This document shows positions 44,771-62,740 of a DNA stretch of 64,000 nt, piece by piece (the stretch's first letter is position 1; each line of letters opens with the position of its first letter). The DNA is taken from positions 1 to 64,000 of the IMG/VR virus record IMGVR_UViG_3300036851_000098; one strand, given 5' to 3'. A program made the position numbers and the translations under genes. The notes under the pieces are model-generated. The model did not search any database and was not told where the DNA came from. It saw nothing but the letters and a program-made list of their open reading frames with translations. This DNA is from a virus.

Positions 44771-45275
44771 TTCGTATCACTGGATCAACTACGACGAAGA
44801 AAAACTTAGGTTTCGCTATAAGACTCTTCGTGCGGCGCTCGAAGGAATAGAGCAGCATCGCTACGCAGCGATTTGTATCGCCGAAAGGATTGTCCAAGAT
44901 GATGAAAGAACAACCCTGGGACTGTACATCAATCAATGCATTCAATACAGAATGCACCCAGAAATTGTCCTGTTTTATTCTCCTAATGCATTCGGAACAG
45001 TTGACGCCATTGCGTATCGATATCGAGTGCTTAGGATCTCAGATCTCAAGACAGGAGCCACTCGAGTCTCAGAACATCAGCTGGAAGTATATGCAGCGTT
45101 TTTCTGTCTCGAGTACGAAATTAGTCCTTTCCACATGAGAGGAATTGAGCTTCGTATTTACAAAGACGGCAAAGTACAGGTGTACGATGCTGATCCCCAC
45201 TACATAAAGGGGCTCATGGATAAGATCGTTCGTTTCGACGGAATTCTCAACATGCTTCGAGAGGAGGTGTCGTAG
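44715..45275 (+). CDS. RecB/Cas4-like exonuclease with probable CTG start
   Basis: About 186 aa. The frame opens at a stop at 44712. CTG 44715, seven bases after GAGGAGGTG, is the first start and gives KHSHLEGQHAFLSPSSYHW, a conserved phage N-terminus that would be lost from ATG 44952. FGTVDAIAYR, RISDLKTGATRVSEHQLEVY provide the D, D-x-K and Q of the RecB/Cas4 nuclease core. Likely processes DNA ends for recombination. A programmed frameshift from the previous gene is a less likely alternative. Confidence 0.65.
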   Translation: MRFNKHSHLEGQHAFLSPSSYHWINYDEEKLRFRYKTLRAALEGIEQHRYAAICIAERIVQDDERTTLGLYINQCIQYRMHPEIVLFYSPNAFGTVDAIAYRYRVLRISDLKTGATRVSEHQLEVYAAFFCLEYEISPFHMRGIELRIYKDGKVQVYDADPHYIKGLMDKIVRFDGILNMLREEVS

Positions 45276-48139
45276 TGCGCGTTACTGAAGAAGACTACTT
45301 GATGCATTACGGCATCAAGCGTAAGTCAGGTCGGTATCCTTGGGGATCTGGTCAGAATCCTCTACAACGTTCAAAGACGTTCCTAGGAATAATCGAGCAA
45401 CACAAGAAAATCGACAAAATGACTGAGTCCGAGATTGCTAGGGCATACTCGGATAATGATCACAAACTCAGTGTCGCTGACATTAGAGCAATGAGGTCTA
45501 TTGCTGGTGCAGAAGTCAAGATGGATCAGATTCGTACTGCCCAACGTCTAAGAGATAAGGGTATGGGCGCGTCTGCGATTGCAAGGCAGATGGACCTAAA
45601 CGAGTCTACTGTCCGTTCGCTTCTGGAGCCAGGTAGGCAGGAGAAGTTGGACATTCTCATGAATACCGCCGACATGCTCAAGCGGCAGGTCGAAGAAAAG
45701 GGTATGATTGACGTCGGTTCAAACGTCAATCTAGATCTTCCGATTGGCGACAATCCTGCCACCCGAATCGGAATTAGTCCAGATAAGTTTGCTACTGCTC
45801 TTTCCATGCTCAAGGAAGAGGGCTACCAAGTTCATACTTTCAACGCCCCTCAGGTTGGAACTGGAGAGATGACCAAGTACAAGGTGCTGGTCAAGCCTGG
45901 GGTTACGCAGAAAGAAGCTTGGTCCAATCGTGACAACATTCGTCTGATCTCGGAAAAGACCGACGATCGTGGCAGAAATTTCACCGATTTTGGTATCCAG
46001 CCTCCGTTGAATGTCTCCTCCAAGCGAGTGGGCATCAACTATAAGGAGGATGGTGGTAGTGACGCGGACGGCGTGATCTATGTTCGTCCTGGTGTCCCTG
46101 ATATAACGCTTGGTAAATCTCGTTATGCTCAGGTTCGTATTGCGATTGATGGTTCACACTATCTCAAGGGTATGGCTGTCTACAAAGACAATCTACCCCC
46201 TGGCATGGATCTTCAGTTCAATACGAACAAGTCCAACACGGGCAATAAGCGTGACGCTATGAAACCCCTGAAGAGGGACCCTCAAACGGGTGAGGTCGAT
46301 AAGGATAACCCATTTGGTGCCGTCATCAAGAAGGATGGCCAGATCCTAGATAAGAATGGGAAAGTCAAGTCGGCGATGAATCTCATCAACGAAGAGGGTG
46401 ATTGGGATACATGGTCAAGAAACTTGTCCAGTCAGGTTCTCTCGAAGCAGAAGCCTGAACTAATTAAGACCCAATTGGATCTTACTCATGATCGGCGTAG
46501 AGCTGAGCTTGAAGAAATTCGCTCGCTCACTAACCCGCAGATCAAGAGAAAGCTTCTCGAAACTTTCGCTGAAGAGACTGATGCTGCAGCTGTGCATCTC
46601 AAAGCAGCAGCTATGCCTAATCAGGCTACTAAAGTCATTCTTCCGTCGAACAAAGTAAAGCCTAATGAGATCTTTGCTCCTACTTTCAGGGATGGAGACA
46701 AGGTTGCTCTTGTGCGATTCCCTCATGCGGGAACGTTCGAGATTCCAGAACTGACTGTTAACAACAAGTCACGTGAAGCAAAGGCTCTAGTTGGACTGAA
46801 CAAGGGTGGGACAGCAAGAGACGCTGTAGTCATTCACCCCAAGGTAGCAGAGAGACTATCTGGTGCTGACTTTGATGGCGACGCTGTCGTTGTCATTCCA
46901 AACAATCGTGGGCGGATTACCCATAAGCCCCCGTTGGAGGGACTTAAGGGATTTGATCCTCAAAGCGAATTTGCTCCCTATCATGGTATGAAGACCATTG
47001 ATGGAGGAACGTACAACGCTACTACAAAGAAGATCGAATACCCTAAGGACAAGGACGGTAACGAACGCAGTCCCAACAAGTCGAGAAAACAGCATGAGAT
47101 GGGTAACGTTACCAACCTAATCTCTGACATGACCATTCGTGGTGCTAACAACGACGAGATAGCTCGTGCAGTGAAGCACTCTATGGTGGTTATCGATTCT
47201 GAGAAGCATGTTCTCGACTTCAAGGCTTCGGAGAGAATCAACGGAATCACAGCTCTTAAGAAGAAGTATCAAGGCGTGCACCCTAAGACAGGGCAAGCAC
47301 GTGGTGCTTCTACGATCATTACTCGTGCTACTGCACAGACTCATCCTGTACAAAGGAAGGACGCATCAGCTGGTCCTGGCAGAACTAGGATCTCTAGTGG
47401 TACGGTTGACAATCGTACAGGTAAGAAGCTGTATGAACCTACGGGTAAGCGTAAGCGTGACGGTAGTCTAGCTACGTTTAAGTCTCAGAAGTTGGCTGAG
47501 ACAGATGATGCCTTTGAGTTGGTGTCAAAAGGTAGGGGCACTACGGAAGAACAGCTCTATGCTGAGCATTCTAATCGGCTTAAGGCTATGGCCAATGAGG
47601 TACGTAAAGAACTAATCCGTATCAAGCCCATCCCCTACTCGCCCTCAGCCAACAAGGTGTACAAGCATGAAGTGGATTCGCTTACAGCGAAATTGCGTAA
47701 GGCTGAAAAGAACGCCCCCCTCGAACGGCAGGCCCAGGCTGTAGCCAGGCGGATCGTTGCGGATCGTAAACGCGCAAACCCAGGGATGGAGAAGGACGAG
47801 GAGCGGAAGATCAAAGGTCAGGCGTTGACCGAAGCTCGACGTAGAACAGGAGCGGGTAAAGTACGCCTAGGTTCTGATGAATCCCCCATTACTGATCGTG
47901 AGTGGGAAGCTATTCAGAATGGTGCGATCTCGAATCACATGTTGGATAACATCTTGAAGAACTCTAACATAGACAAGATCCGTGAGCGCGCAACACCTAG
48001 AGAGAAGCCTGTGATGAGTAATGTCATGACAGCTAGGGCCAGGCAGATGATTGCGTCTGGGTACCCATTGTCGGTCATTGCTGAGCAACTGGACATTCCT
48101 GTGTCCACCCTTAAGTCTGGGCTTGAGGATGGGGGGTGA
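45275..48139 (+). CDS. RNA polymerase beta-prime-like protein with DFDGD motif
   Basis: 954 aa, GTG overlapping the previous stop, after GAGGAGG. The N-terminus contains LMHYGIKRKSGRYPWGSG (residues 9-26), a tag related to HYG…RWG motifs of phage head proteins. An HTH follows (DKGMGASAIARQMDLNESTV, about 90-115). VALVRFPHAGTFEIPELTV and VVIHPKVAERLSGADFDGDA (DFDGD at 532-536) align with the double-psi beta-barrel of RNAP beta-prime (R-x-P and HP…ADFDGD). Basic middle segments and a C-terminal HTH end it. This resembles single-chain YonO or crAss-like RNAPs. Transcription activity is inferred; the second barrel is not assigned. Confidence 0.65.
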   Translation: MRVTEEDYLMHYGIKRKSGRYPWGSGQNPLQRSKTFLGIIEQHKKIDKMTESEIARAYSDNDHKLSVADIRAMRSIAGAEVKMDQIRTAQRLRDKGMGASAIARQMDLNESTVRSLLEPGRQEKLDILMNTADMLKRQVEEKGMIDVGSNVNLDLPIGDNPATRIGISPDKFATALSMLKEEGYQVHTFNAPQVGTGEMTKYKVLVKPGVTQKEAWSNRDNIRLISEKTDDRGRNFTDFGIQPPLNVSSKRVGINYKEDGGSDADGVIYVRPGVPDITLGKSRYAQVRIAIDGSHYLKGMAVYKDNLPPGMDLQFNTNKSNTGNKRDAMKPLKRDPQTGEVDKDNPFGAVIKKDGQILDKNGKVKSAMNLINEEGDWDTWSRNLSSQVLSKQKPELIKTQLDLTHDRRRAELEEIRSLTNPQIKRKLLETFAEETDAAAVHLKAAAMPNQATKVILPSNKVKPNEIFAPTFRDGDKVALVRFPHAGTFEIPELTVNNKSREAKALVGLNKGGTARDAVVIHPKVAERLSGADFDGDAVVVIPNNRGRITHKPPLEGLKGFDPQSEFAPYHGMKTIDGGTYNATTKKIEYPKDKDGNERSPNKSRKQHEMGNVTNLISDMTIRGANNDEIARAVKHSMVVIDSEKHVLDFKASERINGITALKKKYQGVHPKTGQARGASTIITRATAQTHPVQRKDASAGPGRTRISSGTVDNRTGKKLYEPTGKRKRDGSLATFKSQKLAETDDAFELVSKGRGTTEEQLYAEHSNRLKAMANEVRKELIRIKPIPYSPSANKVYKHEVDSLTAKLRKAEKNAPLERQAQAVARRIVADRKRANPGMEKDEERKIKGQALTEARRRTGAGKVRLGSDESPITDREWEAIQNGAISNHMLDNILKNSNIDKIRERATPREKPVMSNVMTARARQMIASGYPLSVIAEQLDIPVSTLKSGLEDGG

Positions 48140-55127: not shown

Positions 55128-55553
55128 ATGGAACAGAGCATTCTAAAGAGTACCAAGAAGTATGTGGGTCTTGATCCTGAAAACACAGCATTCGATCTTG
55201 ACATCCTCACCCTTATTAACTCGGCGTTCTCCACCATCCACGATCTGGGTGTGGGTCCTGATAGTGGCTTCGCTATCGAAGACGAAGAAACGGTGTGGCA
55301 GGATTTTCTTGATGAGGACCCCGTGCAGCTTGGGCATATCAAAATCGTCGTCTGGACTCGGACACGGCTGGGATTTGATCCTCCTACTCAGCAATTCCTT
55401 ATCGAGGCAATCAACAAGCAGCGTGAGGAAGCTGAGTGGCGACTCAACACGAACCGCGAAGCAGTCGCGTGGGTCGATCCTGATCCGGCTGATGTCGTAG
55501 ATGAAGACGAATTGGTCGTCCTCGACGGCGGCGACGCGGAGGATTCACCATGA
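55128..55553 (+). CDS. Hypothetical structural-type protein
   Basis: 141 aa, ATG after AAAGGGGGTGGAGA. DLDILTLINSAFSTIHDLGV, FDPPTQQFLIEAINKQREEA resemble head-tail-connector-like phage proteins, with an acidic tail. Overlaps the collagen-like gene by four bases. Confidence 0.55.
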   Translation: MEQSILKSTKKYVGLDPENTAFDLDILTLINSAFSTIHDLGVGPDSGFAIEDEETVWQDFLDEDPVQLGHIKIVVWTRTRLGFDPPTQQFLIEAINKQREEAEWRLNTNREAVAWVDPDPADVVDEDELVVLDGGDAEDSP

Positions 55554-58378
55554 GTCGAATCGTTTTCAAGCTTCGACGAGATTTCGCCGCAGATTGGACT
55601 GCGGCAAATCCTGTCCTTTCTGATGGCGAGCCTGGATTGGAGATCGATACCGGGAATCTGAAGGTCGGCGATGGAATCACCGCTTGGAATGAGCTGGATT
55701 ATTTTGTCGAAGCAGGATCGGTTGGGCCAGCAGGCCCGGCAGGTCCCGAAGGCCCGGCAGGTCCCGAAGGCCCGGCAGGTCCCGAAGGCCCTGCAGGCGC
55801 CGATGGCGCAGATGGCGCACCTGGTCCGGCAGGTCCAGCTGGTGAACCGGGTTCAGCAGGAGCTGATGGCGAAGACGGTGCCACAGGTCCGCAGGGCGCA
55901 ACTGGCCCCGCAGGGCCGCAGGGTGTTGAAGGACCGCAAGGCGGGCAGGGGCCTCAGGGTGCTGACGGCACTTCCTTCATTTACCAAGGTGAATGGAACA
56001 ATACCGATACATACAATCCTCTTGATGTTGTTCGCAGTCCAATTTCTTTTGATACGTATATTGCAGTTCAAGAGAATACTGGAGTAAACCCCGACACCGA
56101 TACGACGAACACGTATTGGGATCCGATTGCTATTGAAGGCGTTATGGGTCCCGAAGGCCCGCAAGGTGAGCAGGGGGCAACCGGTCCTGCGGGTCCTCAA
56201 GGTATTCAGGGGATTCAGGGTGAGCAAGGCGAAACTGGTCCTGCTGGTCCCGAAGGCCCCGAAGGTCCCGAAGGACCTCAGGGTGAGACCGGCCCTATGG
56301 GCCTACCCTCTCCTGGTGCTGTGTTGTTCTTCGAAACGTTCGACGTGGATCTTTCCAACTATTCACAGCCCTCACGGGGTGCTGTGTCTGGTGGATTGTT
56401 CAACGCGGTTACGCCGTTCAATGTGGACACTGTTATGTCAACAGTGCTCAAGTTCCCGTACGGCGTCATCATGCATGAAATCAAGTATGTAATCGGTTCG
56501 GGTGGCACCACTCCTAATGGCGTTGGCGTCATGCTTCGATATCTTGACGATAACAACTACGTCTTCGTCAGGCATGAGTATATTGCCAACCGTCTTGGTG
56601 TGTACAGGAAAATTGGCGGCGCTTCGCCCGCACTTGTTGGTCGAATCAATGTTGCGGCGACGGCTGTCGGAGCTACTCGTTGGCTGAGAGCTTGGCTAAC
56701 GCCAGATGGCTATGCGCATGCTGCACTATTTTCTTCTGACCCCAACGTCGATACTCCTCCGGATCCAATCTCGGTTACCTCAGAACAGGGAACGGTTCTC
56801 AGTTCGAACGCCACGTTTGGCGCTATGCGCAACGATTTGGCGGCTGGTCTATATTTCAATCTGCCTTCGGCTACGACGAAGATCGACCATCATAAGGTCT
56901 ACGTTGCATCTCGCGGGCCTAAGGGTGACACTGGTTCTACGGGAGTAACTGGTGCTACTGGGGCTACCGGAGCAACTGGTGCCACTGGGGCTACCGGACC
57001 TGCCGGGCCGACTGGTGCTGAGGGCGATTCGGCCTATGAGGTTGCTGTCGCGAATGGGTTTGTGGGAACTGAGGAAGACTGGCTCGAGTCGTTGGGCGGT
57101 ATCCAAGGTCCTGCGGGCGAAGATGGTTCGACATGGCATTCTGGAACAGGCGCTCCTTCTGGGGCTATCCATGATGTCGGCGATTGGTATCTGGATGATT
57201 CCAATGGCAATGTCTATGAGAAAACTGGTGCTTCTTCGTGGACGCTTCGAGATAATTTGACAGGTCCACAGGGTATTCAGGGTATTCAGGGTGATCCTGG
57301 TGAAGGTGGAAGCGCCGCTGTTTGGCGTTCTGGTACAGGAGCTCCTTCGGGTGCTCTCGGTAATATCGGCGACTGGTATCTGGATGATGCTAATGGCGAT
57401 GTATATGAAAAGACCGGATCGTCCACTTACACGCTTCGTGACAACATTATGGGGCCCGCTGGTGCTGATGGTACTATTGGTGCCGATGGCGCGGATGGAT
57501 CAGTTTGGCGTTCGGGTTCCGGAGCTCCTTCGGGAGCTCTAGGAGTAATTGGTGATTGGTATCTTGACACCGCTAATGGCGATGTGTATGAGAAGACTGG
57601 TTCTTCTACTTACACTCTGCGTGATAACCTTACTGGCCCAGCTGGTGCAGATGGAACTGACGGGTCGGTTTGGCGATCTGGTACTGGTGCACCTTCTGGT
57701 GCGTTAGGTGTAATTGGAGACTGGTATCTGAACGACGCTAACGGAGATGTTTACGAGAAGACTGGCTCTTCTACGTATACTCTGCGTGACAACCTTACTG
57801 GTCCTACGGGTGCGGCTGGTGCCGATGGCGCTGACGGAGCCGATGGATCGCCTGGCGCAGCCGGTGCGGATGGTGTTGATGGATCAGTTTGGCGTTCGGG
57901 TTCCGGAGCTCCTTCGGGAGCTCTGGGGGTGATTGGCGATTGGTATCTTGACACCGCTAATGGCGATGTGTATGAGAAGACTGGTTCTTCTACTTATACA
58001 CTTCGAACCAATATTACTGGGCCGCAAGGTCCTGCTGCATCAAACGTCTATTACCACACGTTTAATTTCACAGTCATGGGCACTGTGGCTGATGGAATCA
58101 CAGTTCCTGATGTTCGTATTAGGTTGGCGACGGGACAGACAGCTCGTCTAATTGTTGTGGAAGCGAATATTGTTACCGGCTCTATCACCATTCAACCGCG
58201 TATCAATGGTTCTAATGCAGGCTCTTCGTTCTCCACCGATTCGGATGCAGCTTGGGAAACGAGTGCAACATTGAACACCTCGCTATCTGATGGTGATGTG
58301 CTCGATTTTACAACCGCTTCTGGTGCATCTTCTCCGGCGAACCTGACTGTCGCATTTGTGGTGGAGTATACGATCTAA
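55550..58378 (+). CDS. Collagen-like tail fibre protein
   Basis: 942 aa. The N-terminal 60 residues (KLRRDFAADWTAANPVLSDG, EPGLEIDTGNLKVGDGITAW) are a known fibre/hyaluronidase-associated start. Many Gly-X-Y collagen-like runs (GPAGPAGPEGPAGPEGPAG etc.) alternate with a carbohydrate-type beta domain (about residues 260-440) and five copies of a SGTGAPSGALGxIGDWYLDD, NGDVYEKTG module. The C-terminal domain is beta-rich. It is a trimeric tail or baseplate fibre for host recognition. Internal DNA repeats suggest recombination-prone length variation. Confidence 0.85.
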   Translation: MSRIVFKLRRDFAADWTAANPVLSDGEPGLEIDTGNLKVGDGITAWNELDYFVEAGSVGPAGPAGPEGPAGPEGPAGPEGPAGADGADGAPGPAGPAGEPGSAGADGEDGATGPQGATGPAGPQGVEGPQGGQGPQGADGTSFIYQGEWNNTDTYNPLDVVRSPISFDTYIAVQENTGVNPDTDTTNTYWDPIAIEGVMGPEGPQGEQGATGPAGPQGIQGIQGEQGETGPAGPEGPEGPEGPQGETGPMGLPSPGAVLFFETFDVDLSNYSQPSRGAVSGGLFNAVTPFNVDTVMSTVLKFPYGVIMHEIKYVIGSGGTTPNGVGVMLRYLDDNNYVFVRHEYIANRLGVYRKIGGASPALVGRINVAATAVGATRWLRAWLTPDGYAHAALFSSDPNVDTPPDPISVTSEQGTVLSSNATFGAMRNDLAAGLYFNLPSATTKIDHHKVYVASRGPKGDTGSTGVTGATGATGATGATGATGPAGPTGAEGDSAYEVAVANGFVGTEEDWLESLGGIQGPAGEDGSTWHSGTGAPSGAIHDVGDWYLDDSNGNVYEKTGASSWTLRDNLTGPQGIQGIQGDPGEGGSAAVWRSGTGAPSGALGNIGDWYLDDANGDVYEKTGSSTYTLRDNIMGPAGADGTIGADGADGSVWRSGSGAPSGALGVIGDWYLDTANGDVYEKTGSSTYTLRDNLTGPAGADGTDGSVWRSGTGAPSGALGVIGDWYLNDANGDVYEKTGSSTYTLRDNLTGPTGAAGADGADGADGSPGAAGADGVDGSVWRSGSGAPSGALGVIGDWYLDTANGDVYEKTGSSTYTLRTNITGPQGPAASNVYYHTFNFTVMGTVADGITVPDVRIRLATGQTARLIVVEANIVTGSITIQPRINGSNAGSSFSTDSDAAWETSATLNTSLSDGDVLDFTTASGASSPANLTVAFVVEYTI

Positions 58379-59724: not shown

Positions 59725-59771
59725 TGTTCGAAGCTATTCGTCAGCAATTGAAAAGGAGGTGAAGCTTCAAA

Positions 59772-60980
59772 ATGGGTAGTAATCTTGTCGTAGTGGCTAT
59801 CCCCGATGAGAACGATCGTGTATGGAAGGTCTCGAGCGAAAAGATTCCTCATCTCACCGTCCTCTTCCTGGGTGATGTGGACGAGGTTTCAAATCTCGAT
59901 CAGATCGTCCAGTTCGTGGAGCATGCGGCCGAGCAGACGCTGCGGCGGTTCTATCTTCCGGTGGACCGTCGCGGTGAGCTTGGCGCCGACAAAGCGGACG
60001 TTCTCTTTTTCAAGAAGGGACGTTACGACTTCAAGGCGATTCGAGACTTCCGAACGGCGCTTCTTCAGGACAGCAACATCAGGAAAGCGTACGATTCTAC
60101 AACACAATTCGAAACGCCGCCTGCGGTTGGTTCTCCTGGGCAGTCCTGGATCCCTCATCTGACTCTCGGCTATCCGACGTCGCCAGCCAAGCCTGAGAAG
60201 GGAGATCAGTATCCCGGATTCTACGACGTCTGCTTCCACAAGATCGCTGTGTGGGTGGGAGATTACGAGGGCTCCGAGTTTCTGTTGAAGGATCAGTGGG
60301 AAGAGATGGAGCTAGCTGAGGTTGCGCCAATGGACGTAGCTATGAGCGATCTGGTAAGTCGGAATCAGGCTCGTATTGCTCTCGGCCTTAAGGAGATCGA
60401 AGCCGAGCTCGAACACTATGGCGTGAAGGGTATGCGTTGGGGACAGCGTAGGTCGGAGCGTCAGCTTGCTGTGGCTCAGAAGCGAAGGAATGACGCTAAG
60501 ACTCTGGAAGAAGCTGCTGCTCGTAGAGGCGAAGGGGCTACTCGTGGAATCCTTGAGCGACTCGCTGCTCAAGAGCGAAGCGGAGCGCTTAAGCTTGAAG
60601 CCAAAGCTAGGTCAAGACAAGAGAAATTGGCTGAGAAAACGGCTACAGTAGAGCCTACCGCTAAGTCTGTTGTTCCTCCTGGGTCGAAGCGTAAGACTAA
60701 AATCGATGTTGAAGGTGGAGAAAATCATCCGGCTACGGAAGACGCGCTTAACGTAGCTAAGGCTCAAGTTAAATTGCAAAAGAGTGGTGCTGCTGCTCTC
60801 TCTAATAAAGAGCTTCGTGAAGTTGCTAATCGGCTGCAACTAGAGCAACAAGTCAAGCAGCTGTCTACGTCTGGTGGACGTAAGTTTGTAACTAACCTGT
60901 TGAGAGAACAGGGCAAGCAACAGACTCAAAGTCTTATCAACGAGCAGATCAGAGACTTGCGGCGTCGCCAGGCAGCATAA
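59772..60980 (+). CDS. 2H-phosphoesterase fused to HYGVKGMRWG head-tag
   Basis: 402 aa, ATG after AAAGGAGGTGAAGCTTCAAA. Residues 1-200 contain the two signature H-x-T motifs, IPHLTVLFLGD (about 25-35) and IPHLTLGYP (about 127-135), of the 2H phosphodiesterase fold (LigT/Acb1-like). EHYGVKGMRWGQRRSERQ (about 213-230) is the tag found in phage head-associated and muF-type proteins. A long Ala/Glu/Lys coiled coil follows. Potential roles: RNA or cyclic-oligonucleotide cleavage, and capsid packaging. The link to anti-CBASS is inference. Confidence 0.7.
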   Translation: MGSNLVVVAIPDENDRVWKVSSEKIPHLTVLFLGDVDEVSNLDQIVQFVEHAAEQTLRRFYLPVDRRGELGADKADVLFFKKGRYDFKAIRDFRTALLQDSNIRKAYDSTTQFETPPAVGSPGQSWIPHLTLGYPTSPAKPEKGDQYPGFYDVCFHKIAVWVGDYEGSEFLLKDQWEEMELAEVAPMDVAMSDLVSRNQARIALGLKEIEAELEHYGVKGMRWGQRRSERQLAVAQKRRNDAKTLEEAAARRGEGATRGILERLAAQERSGALKLEAKARSRQEKLAEKTATVEPTAKSVVPPGSKRKTKIDVEGGENHPATEDALNVAKAQVKLQKSGAAALSNKELREVANRLQLEQQVKQLSTSGGRKFVTNLLREQGKQQTQSLINEQIRDLRRRQAA

Positions 60981-60994
60981 GAAAGGAGGGGTAC

Positions 60995-62740
60995 GTGGCA
61001 CTGTCCAACAAAGCAGTCCCGGTGTATTACGGGCAGTTCCGCGATGCGGTGATGCGGGGCGACATTCCGGTCAACCGGGAAATCTCACTAGAGATGAACC
61101 GGATCGATTCGCTCATCGCAAACCCCAACATCTATTACGACGATCAGGCAGTGGAGGGCTTTCTCCGCTTTTGCGAGGGCGAGATGACCCTTACAGATGG
61201 AAACGATCTCCACCTCCTATTCACATTCAAGCTATGGGCCGAACAGATCTTCGGCTGGTATTACTTCGTTGACCGGTCGATTTACGTCCCCTCTGATGGT
61301 AATCACGGGGGTCATTACGAGACTAGGACGATCAAAATCCGGTTGATCAAGAAGTTCTACCTTATCGTAGCCCGAGGTGCGGCCAAATCGATGTTCGCTG
61401 CATTAATCCAGGCATACTTCCTAACCGTCGATACGGCGACTACTCATCAGATCACAGCGGCCCCGACCATGAAGCAGGCAGAAGAGGTCATGTCCCCCTT
61501 CCGTACTGCCATCACCAGAGCTAGAGGTCCGTTGTTCAAGTTCCTTACCGAGGGATCTCTGCAGAATACTACCGGAGATCGGATGCTTCGGCAGAAGTTG
61601 GCAGCAACTAAGAAGGGAGTCGAGAACTTCCTTACTGGATCACTGCTTGAAGTCCGTCCAATGACCATTAATAAGCTTCAGGGTCTTCGAACCAAGATCG
61701 CTTCAATCGATGAGTGGCTTTCTGGTGACCTTCGAGAGGATGTAATTGGCGCAGTTGAGCAGGGTGCTTCTAAGCTTGATGACTATTTGATCATTGCTAT
61801 CTCTTCTGAGGGCACTGTTCGAAATGGTTCCGGTGACACAATCAAAATGGAACTTGCTGACATCCTCAAGGGTGAGTATGCAGCTCCTCACGTTTCAATC
61901 TGGCACTACAAACTGGACGAATTGGAGGAAGTTGGCGATCCGTCTACGTGGTTGAAGGCGAATCCTAATCTTGGGCAAACAGTTACATACGAGACTTATC
62001 AGCTCGATGTCGAAAGAGCTGAAAAAGCTCCAGCTGCTCGTAACGATATTCTTGCCAAGCGTTTTGGTATCCCGATGGAGGGTTACACATACTTCTTCAC
62101 GTATGAAGAGACTCTTCCGCATCGTGTTCGTGAGTTCTGGCAGCTTCCGTGTTCTCTGGGTATGGATGCTTCACAGGGTGACGACTTCTGGGCGTTTACT
62201 TTCTTGTTCCCGCTAGGCGGAAGCCGATTTGGTGTAAAAACTCGCAGCTACATCACCGAGCGGACGCTCATGATGTTGCAGCCTGCCATGCGCCAGAAGT
62301 ATGAAGAGTTCATCCAAGAGGGAAGTCTTCATGTAATGCCGGGAACCGTTCTCGAATGGGAACAGATCTATGATGACATGGATGCGTTTATCATCAAAGC
62401 AGAGTACGACGTTCGATGCTTTGGTTACGACCCGTACAATGCTAAAGAGTTCGTTACTCGATGGGAAGCTGAAAATGGCCCATTCGGTATTGAGAAGGTG
62501 ATTCAGGGTGCGAAGACTGAGTCCGTGCCGTTAGGAGAGTTGAAAAAGCTTTCAGAAGATCGTTTTCTCATATTTGACCAGTCTCTGATGTCATTCGCCA
62601 TGGGTAATGCTATTACTCTGGAAGATACAAATGGTAATCGCAAGCTGCTTAAGAAGCGCCAAGAGGAGAAAATCGACAACGTGGCGGCCATGATGGATGC
62701 TTACATCGCGTTCAAGGCAAACACAGAGGCATTCGAATGA
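60995..62740 (+). CDS. terL: Terminase large subunit
   Basis: 581 aa, GTG after AAAGGAGGGGTAC. LIVARGAAKSMFAALI near residue 125 is the deviant Walker A of TerL, SIDEW near 237 is motif II, and MDASQGDDFWAF near 389, FGYDPYNAKE and DNVAAMMDAYIAFK supply the RNase H-like nuclease aspartates. The HK97-type terminase packages DNA into the procapsid. It lies between a 2H-phosphoesterase and fibre-like genes, not beside a portal gene. Confidence 0.9.
   Translation: MALSNKAVPVYYGQFRDAVMRGDIPVNREISLEMNRIDSLIANPNIYYDDQAVEGFLRFCEGEMTLTDGNDLHLLFTFKLWAEQIFGWYYFVDRSIYVPSDGNHGGHYETRTIKIRLIKKFYLIVARGAAKSMFAALIQAYFLTVDTATTHQITAAPTMKQAEEVMSPFRTAITRARGPLFKFLTEGSLQNTTGDRMLRQKLAATKKGVENFLTGSLLEVRPMTINKLQGLRTKIASIDEWLSGDLREDVIGAVEQGASKLDDYLIIAISSEGTVRNGSGDTIKMELADILKGEYAAPHVSIWHYKLDELEEVGDPSTWLKANPNLGQTVTYETYQLDVERAEKAPAARNDILAKRFGIPMEGYTYFFTYEETLPHRVREFWQLPCSLGMDASQGDDFWAFTFLFPLGGSRFGVKTRSYITERTLMMLQPAMRQKYEEFIQEGSLHVMPGTVLEWEQIYDDMDAFIIKAEYDVRCFGYDPYNAKEFVTRWEAENGPFGIEKVIQGAKTESVPLGELKKLSEDRFLIFDQSLMSFAMGNAITLEDTNGNRKLLKKRQEEKIDNVAAMMDAYIAFKANTEAFE

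What the first reader, a model, noticed from the sequence alone, without database searches (positions are those of the whole stretch)
59772..60980. 2H-phosphoesterase fused to the HYGVKGMRWG head-associated motif
Two H-x-T motifs about 100 residues apart are visible, as in LigT-type and Acb1-type enzymes. The HYG tag follows directly. Enzymes delivered with the capsid could cleave RNA or cyclic-nucleotide signals at infection start.
Basis: partly seen in the sequence, partly recalled or inferred. Interest (0 to 1): 0.75.

Follow-up and report, generated by a model that had tools for sequence, protein, structure and literature searches.

The report
Phage head protein carrying 2H phosphoesterase
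Next to the DNA-packaging motor gene, this phage encodes a well-conserved RNA/nucleotide-cleaving enzyme joined to a short tag shared by many head-region phage proteins, so the enzyme is probably carried in the virus particle and released into the bacterium to blunt its defences; the enzyme idea is already in the literature, but the tag as a general cargo label appears undescribed.

Summary
ORF 59772-60980 (402 aa) has a confident 2H-phosphoesterase fold (residues 1-175; HLT at 27-29 and 129-131), a ~40-residue linker, the DUF7211 tag HYGVKGMRWG (215-224) and a helical C-terminus, 14 bp upstream of TerL. Both HxT motifs are invariant in 48 aligned sequences, and dN/dS is 0.03-0.22. The fold sits nearer LigT/CPDase/Usb1 (VIA Z about 12) than Acb1 (Z 8.5). 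The same 2H subfamily is fused to MuF in Arthrobacter, Microbacterium and Curtobacterium phages; in the records checked, tag phages lack MuF and MuF phages lack the tag. In six complete phages every above-cut-off tag lies between the 1706-gp06-like gene and portal. Tags also sit on GNAT, papain-fold-toxin and protease-like proteins, on a portal C-terminus, and in variant form on a ~900-aa RNA polymerase. The syntenic Lactococcus 1706 gp07, labelled structural protein, carries two tags without 2H. Head-packaged 2H effectors were already predicted (Iyer et al. 2017; PMC9503650, 2022). Best reading: a virion-borne, injected counter-defence phosphoesterase, with DUF7211 a modular head-cargo address. 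Activity, substrate and presence in particles are untested.

The parts
59755..59759 (+). GGAGG ribosome-binding site of the gene
   Evidence: read directly
59772..60980 (+). 402-aa protein: 2H phosphoesterase - DUF7211 tag - helical C-terminus
59772..60296 (+). 2H phosphoesterase domain (residues 1-175), pLDDT above 90 over most of its length
59850..59858 (+). catalytic-type motif 1, H27-L-T29
   Evidence: invariant H and T in A1 and A3; in register with E. coli ThpR
60156..60164 (+). catalytic-type motif 2, H129-L-T131
   Evidence: invariant H and T in A1 and A3; in register with ThpR and T4 Acb1
60393..60458 (+). DUF7211 tag (core HYGVKGMRWG at 60414-60443), predicted flexible
   Evidence: Pfam PF23847 E 1.8e-11; pLDDT under 50 over residues 205-226
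60456..60977 (+). helical C-terminal module containing LSNKELREVANRLQLEQQ, shared with tag proteins that lack 2H, including Lactococcus phage 1706 gp07
60995..62740 (+). terminase large subunit, 14 bp downstream (context)
   Evidence: Pfam TerL_nuclease E 3.3e-35; phrog_9 E 1.3e-110
55128..55553 (+). virion structural protein of the Lactococcus 1706 gp06 type (context)
   Evidence: phrog_4247 E 9.5e-39

Best explanation
The gene encodes a 2H phosphoesterase built as cargo onto a head-associated tag protein. Shown here: a 2H fold with both HxT motifs under purifying selection; a DUF7211 tag confined to the terminase-portal block in the complete phages checked; and the same 2H subfamily mounted on MuF, a head protein, in phages without the tag. 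Inferred: the tag and C-terminal helices dock the protein into the prohead, the enzyme leaves with the DNA, and in the new host it breaks 2',3'-cyclic, 2'-5' or cyclic 3'-5' phosphodiesters by metal-free HxT/HxT acid-base chemistry. The most likely benefit is early removal of oligonucleotide defence signals such as CBASS or type III CRISPR messengers; cutting or trimming host RNA is second.
For: 2H fold: model pLDDT 84.5 with the domain above 90; VIA Z 12.4 to Arabidopsis CPDase, 12.0 to E. coli LigT, 11.9 to human Usb1, 8.5 to Acb1; Foldseek E to 6.7e-7. Pfam 2_5_RNA_ligase2 in 48 of 48 aligned sequences. H27, T29, H129, T131 invariant in 48. dN/dS 0.03-0.22. In a search by 2H motifs only, 65 of 67 distinct relatives carry a tag in the same ORF and 66 of 67 have both HxT motifs, the other being cut by the contig end. 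Tag and MuF exclude each other in the records checked: 6 tag phages and the window phage lack MuF, 5 phages with the MuF-type 2H gene lack the tag. All 25 above-cut-off tags in six complete phages lie between the gp06-like gene and portal. Lactococcus 1706 gp07 has two tags, the shared helix and no 2H, sits just before TerL and is labelled structural protein. Directly before TerL, the tag gene has 2H in 50 distinct cases and lacks it in 86 whole ORFs. Other tag payloads: GNAT, papain-fold toxin, protease-like; one tag is on a portal C-terminus. No ATP-grasp RNA ligase PF09414 in the phage, with controls ringing. Published predictions of head-borne 2H.
Against: No enzymatic or virion proteomic data seen here; the paper behind the 1706 structural labels is not held. 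Two of 67 relatives (L232, L239) are 2H genes without a tag, placed after TerL. The Arg130 of LigT is Tyr or Phe here and Acb1-specific features were not established, so the substrate is open. The host, and so its defences, are unknown. The head link of the tag rests mainly on gene position and record labels, which alone do not prove packaging.
Confidence: 0.5

Rival explanations
1. Head-delivered RNase or RNA trimmer: the 2H domain cuts or trims host RNA, as Usb1 does, to take over the host, rather than destroying signalling nucleotides.
For: Usb1 is among the closest folds, Z 11.9; Iyer et al. 2017 proposed an RNase role for MuF/portal-fused 2H domains by comparison with PBECR RNases.
Against: No RNA-binding domain recognised; Z values of LigT, CPDase and Usb1 are tied, so fold does not choose.
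Confidence: 0.22
2. Cytoplasmic RNA-repair enzyme: opens 2',3'-cyclic ends left by host anticodon nucleases; not a virion protein.
For: Nearest folds LigT and CPDase act on such ends; several records call it RNA ligase.
Against: No ATP-grasp RNA ligase PF09414 in the phage (the T4 Rnl1-type PF09511 search was uninformative because no control rang); 65 of 67 relatives carry the tag and sit in the head block; the same domain is fused to MuF elsewhere.
Confidence: 0.12
3. Purely structural: the tag protein is a minor head component and the 2H domain is a passenger or assembly aid without catalytic role.
For: 86 whole TerL-adjacent tag genes lack 2H; 1706 gp07 is labelled structural and has none.
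Against: H27, T29, H129, T131 are invariant in 48 aligned sequences and dN/dS is 0.03-0.22; an unused active site should decay.
Confidence: 0.1
4. The tag is a processing site for the capsid protease (fused to the major capsid protein here) rather than a docking address. This concerns the tag only and could hold together with the best explanation for the enzyme.
For: Tags lie between modules, up to four per protein, and the phage has a head maturation protease.
Against: Most tags are near the N-terminus (median first tag at residue 13) with conserved sequence on both sides of the core; repeated docking motifs fit as well.
Confidence: 0.2

Closest known systems
Head-packaged 2H domains fused to MuF or portal (Iyer et al. 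2017, PMC5512222; NAD-ADPr survey 2022, PMC9503650)
   Same: 2H domain on a head-block protein; predicted injection and attack on nucleotide signals or RNA; same 2H subfamily found on MuF here.
   Different: Here the carrier is the DUF7211 tag plus helix; no MuF in this phage. The tag is not mentioned in the passages read, and no held paper prints the motif strings searched or the name DUF7211.
E. coli LigT/ThpR and plant CPDase
   Same: Fold (Z 12.0 and 12.4); both HxT motifs in register with ThpR.
   Different: Position of LigT Arg130 is Tyr134 (Tyr 45, Phe 3 of 48); extra tag and helices.
Acb1 (T4 gene 57B; FBB1 structure 7t26)
   Same: 2H fold, HxT/HxT, and P-H-x-T with an aromatic three before and Tyr five after the second His.
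   Different: Lower Z (8.5 against about 12); profile match covers motif 2 only; lid and base-stacking residues not established.
Rhodococcus phage ReqiPepy6 gp013 and homologs in Gordonia and Streptomyces phages
   Same: Same architecture and position just before TerL; some annotated RNA ligase or phosphoesterase.
   Different: About 38-49% identity; longer linker in Pepy6 and Gordonia; ReqiPepy6 adds seven further N-terminally tagged genes before portal.
Lactococcus phage 1706 gp07
   Same: Two DUF7211 tags and the C-terminal helix; directly before TerL; labelled structural protein.
   Different: No 2H domain.
T4 capsid targeting sequence on internal proteins (PMC10229621)
   Same: Short N-terminal peptide that loads enzymes into the head: working analogy.
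   Different: No sequence relation tested; DUF7211 also occurs internally and C-terminally and in several copies.

Membership tests
2H phosphoesterase superfamily | two H-x-S/T motifs | tested here: met
   invariant in 48 aligned sequences; 66 of 67 in a search not using the tag, the other truncated
2H phosphoesterase superfamily | 2H fold | tested here: met
   model with domain pLDDT above 90; VIA Z up to 12.4; Foldseek E to 6.7e-7
2H phosphoesterase superfamily | catalytic histidines facing each other | not testable with these tools
   model coordinates not exposed; both motifs align in register with ThpR
2H phosphoesterase superfamily | phosphodiesterase activity | not testable with these tools
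   needs an assay
LigT/ThpR RNA 2',3'-cyclic phosphodiesterase | phosphate-binding Arg after second HxT (Arg130 in E. coli) | tested here: not met
   aligned residue is Tyr134; Tyr or Phe in all 48 (role of Arg130)
LigT/ThpR RNA 2',3'-cyclic phosphodiesterase | match to Pfam LigT_PEase over its cut-off | tested here: inconclusive
   22.6 bits for the whole protein and 23.7 for residues 1-234 against cut-off 23.3
Acb1 anti-CBASS nuclease | HxT/HxT tetrad in 2H fold | tested here: met
Acb1 anti-CBASS nuclease | aromatic base-stacking residues and C-terminal lid over the ligand | tested here: inconclusive
   features; only the motif 2 region aligns in the profile comparison
Acb1 anti-CBASS nuclease | cleaves cyclic di/trinucleotides | not testable with these tools
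   needs an assay
DUF7211 tag proteins | PF23847 match over cut-off | tested here: met
   43.6 bits against 27, E 1.8e-11
MuF-fused head effectors | Phage_Mu_F domain in the same protein | tested here: not met
   no PF04233 in protein or phage record
virion-packaged ejected protein | present in purified particles | not testable with these tools
   only context and record labels available

The most novel reading that the evidence does not exclude
DUF7211 is a general head-loading address: a peptide of about 20 residues, mobile among genes of the terminase-portal block, that packages many different enzymes (2H, GNAT, papain-fold toxins, proteases) and, in a variant form, a ~900-aa DFDGD RNA polymerase, for injection with the DNA, taking the role that MuF has in other phages.
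Probability: 0.5. Interest if true: 0.78.

Novelty: new variant of a known kind. Interest (0 to 1): 0.55.

Why it matters
Phages need to act in the first minutes of infection, before their own genes are expressed. If the DUF7211 tag is a loading address, tagged genes form a readable list of what a whole phage group injects, and the 2H enzyme becomes a direct test of counter-defence delivered before transcription. The tag could be tested quickly by fusing it to a reporter, and would help name many unknown genes next to terminase.

Tried and rejected
Sequence search of PDB with the single protein found nothing; with the family profile only weak hits, two of them LigT-like proteins whose HxT aligns with motif 1. 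The genome-contig scan with the 2H profile gave 14 pattern matches but no confirmed relative, so no cellular or prophage parent was found there. Literature searches for the tag string or DUF7211 found no paper; the 1706 paper is not held and the passages on 1706 in a review that cites it say nothing on its virion proteins. The PF09511 search was uninformative because no control rang. My first single-linkage clustering of tag payloads chained 242 proteins into one and was replaced by a coverage-based greedy one. A first count of TerL distances mixed genes before and after TerL and used heuristic starts; it was redone on stop-to-stop ORFs. Filing it as LigT or as Acb1 was rejected: Arg130 not met, Acb1 features not established. 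The record name RNA ligase most likely comes from the name of the Pfam family and is not evidence of ligation.

Full report
The observation. The ORF at 59772-60980 is real: ATG start, a GGAGG site at 59755-59759, 402 residues, ending 14 bp before a terminase large-subunit gene at 60995-62740. HLT motifs stand at residues 27-29 and 129-131, and HYGVKGMRWG at 215-224. Pfam recognises the tag as DUF7211 (PF23847, E 1.8e-11) and the N-terminus as 2_5_RNA_ligase2 (E 5.6e-5) and LigT_PEase (E 1.2e-4), both just below cut-off.

The enzyme domain. Forty-seven relatives from viral contigs align with it (A1). H27, T29, H129 and T131 are invariant, with S21, S22, R67, G71, D76, F80, R94, Q112, P128, G133, P135, P138, A139, W161 and G167. 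2_5_RNA_ligase2 is found in all 48 members scanned one by one. The AlphaFold2 model has pLDDT above 90 over most of residues 1-175. In the PDB its best VIA matches are Arabidopsis CPDase 12.4, a P. horikoshii LigT-like protein 12.2, E. coli LigT 12.0 and human Usb1 11.9; rotavirus VP3 C-terminal domain 11.4; Acb1 8.5. Scores within 1 are ties, so the subfamily and substrate are not decided. Profile comparison with E. coli ThpR puts both HxT motifs in register (P 5.2e-6), with T4 Acb1 only the second (P 1.1e-4). The LigT residue Arg130, which binds the product phosphate, is Tyr or Phe here. Pairwise dN/dS over the domain is 0.03-0.22. The shown part ends here: a conserved, selected 2H domain. 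That it is catalytically active is a strong inference, not a measurement.

The tag. In a search with 2H motifs only, so not biased towards the tag, 65 of 67 distinct relatives have at least one tag in the same ORF and 66 have both HxT motifs, the last being cut by a contig end. The two exceptions, L232 and L239, are 2H genes without a tag, placed after TerL. In six complete phages every one of the 25 matches above the family cut-off lies between the gp06-like gene and portal. ReqiPepy6 has seven consecutive genes, gp015-gp021, each beginning with a tag, besides gp013. The sequence is nearly fixed: L-x-H-Y-G-V-K-G-M-K-W-G-V-R, mostly near the N-terminus (median first position 13; starts were chosen by a heuristic). 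The model gives pLDDT below 50 over residues 205-226, as expected of a short motif that orders on binding (inference).

Modularity. Directly before TerL, the tag gene carries a 2H domain in 50 distinct cases and lacks it in 86 whole ORFs; 6 loci have no tag gene there. Lactococcus phage 1706 gp07, in the same place, has two tags and the same C-terminal helix but no 2H, and is labelled structural protein in its record. Of 108 representative tag proteins, all match DUF7211; recognisable payloads include GNAT acetyltransferase, papain-fold toxin (Gln_amidase) and 2H, and one tag sits on the C-terminus of a portal protein. Some have an HExxH-like protease sequence. Conversely, the same 2H subfamily (same SSE, LG-ADV, QF-W-PHVTLGYP signatures) is fused to MuF or the capsid protease in Arthrobacter, Microbacterium and Curtobacterium phages. 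The five such records have no DUF7211, and the six tag phages and the window phage have no MuF domain; in one of the five, Kithara, the 2H domain is at the N-terminus and no Mu_F match is seen. The enzyme has thus been mounted on two different head-block carriers, which is the best evidence that being carried in the head is the point.

Mechanism. The best-supported reading is a virion-borne effector: tag and helices hold it in the prohead, it leaves with the DNA, and it hydrolyses phosphodiesters in the new host through the HxT pair. The packaging step, the injection and the substrate are inferred. Removal of cyclic or 2'-5' oligonucleotide signals is favoured because the domain would be delivered early, no ATP-grasp RNA ligase PF09414 is present in the record, and the same proposal was made for MuF- and portal-fused 2H domains by Iyer et al. 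2017 (PMC5512222) and in 2022 (PMC9503650). An RNase role is the main rival. The host of this phage is unknown; its relatives infect Actinobacteria.

Novelty. A head-carried 2H enzyme is a published prediction, and homologs of this gene sit in 125 public phage records, some called RNA ligase or phosphoesterase. What seems new is the carrier: DUF7211 has no assigned function and no paper held prints the motif strings searched or the name. A variant of the tag, L-x-H-Y-G-I-x-R-x-S-G-R-Y-P-W-G-S-G, begins the RNA polymerase (phrog_4291) at 45275-48139 and its homologs in ReqiPepy6, Kenosha, ClubPenguin, Miek and 1706; the ReqiPepy6 record notes the 1706 homolog as a structural protein. If that polymerase is packaged too, the tag is a general address. 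I grade the finding a new variant of a known kind.

Noticed in passing
45275-48139 (+): RNA polymerase of phrog_4291 (GADFDGD motif, annotated RNA-dependent RNA polymerase in relatives) begins with a variant of the tag, LMHYGIKRKSGRYPWGSG; same in ReqiPepy6 gp048, Kenosha gp89, ClubPenguin gp90, Miek gp87 and 1706 gp75. The ReqiPepy6 record calls the 1706 homolog a structural protein, so it may be a virion RNA polymerase.
   Followed up: partly
L083:3336-3770 (record 64235-64669, outside the window): 144-aa protein just before portal, ending in a broken tag EHYGVKVTR; the related L005:10831-12264 has the same domain followed by a full tag.
   Followed up: partly
55550-58378 (+): 942-aa protein with six collagen-repeat stretches and an Mtd_N domain at the N-terminus, likely a tail or head fibre.
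   Followed up: no
L232:3905-4522 and L239:811-1413: The two 2H relatives without a tag are solo genes placed after TerL instead of before it.
   Followed up: partly
window, among the 62 ORFs scanned: By Pfam the phage has a CsrA-like regulator, a sigma-70-like factor, an L,D-transpeptidase (YkuD) and a matrixin-like peptidase.
   Followed up: no
L085:14185-19935: ReqiPepy6 gp015-gp021: seven consecutive genes each starting with the HYGVKGMKWG tag, payloads mostly of unknown function.
   Followed up: partly
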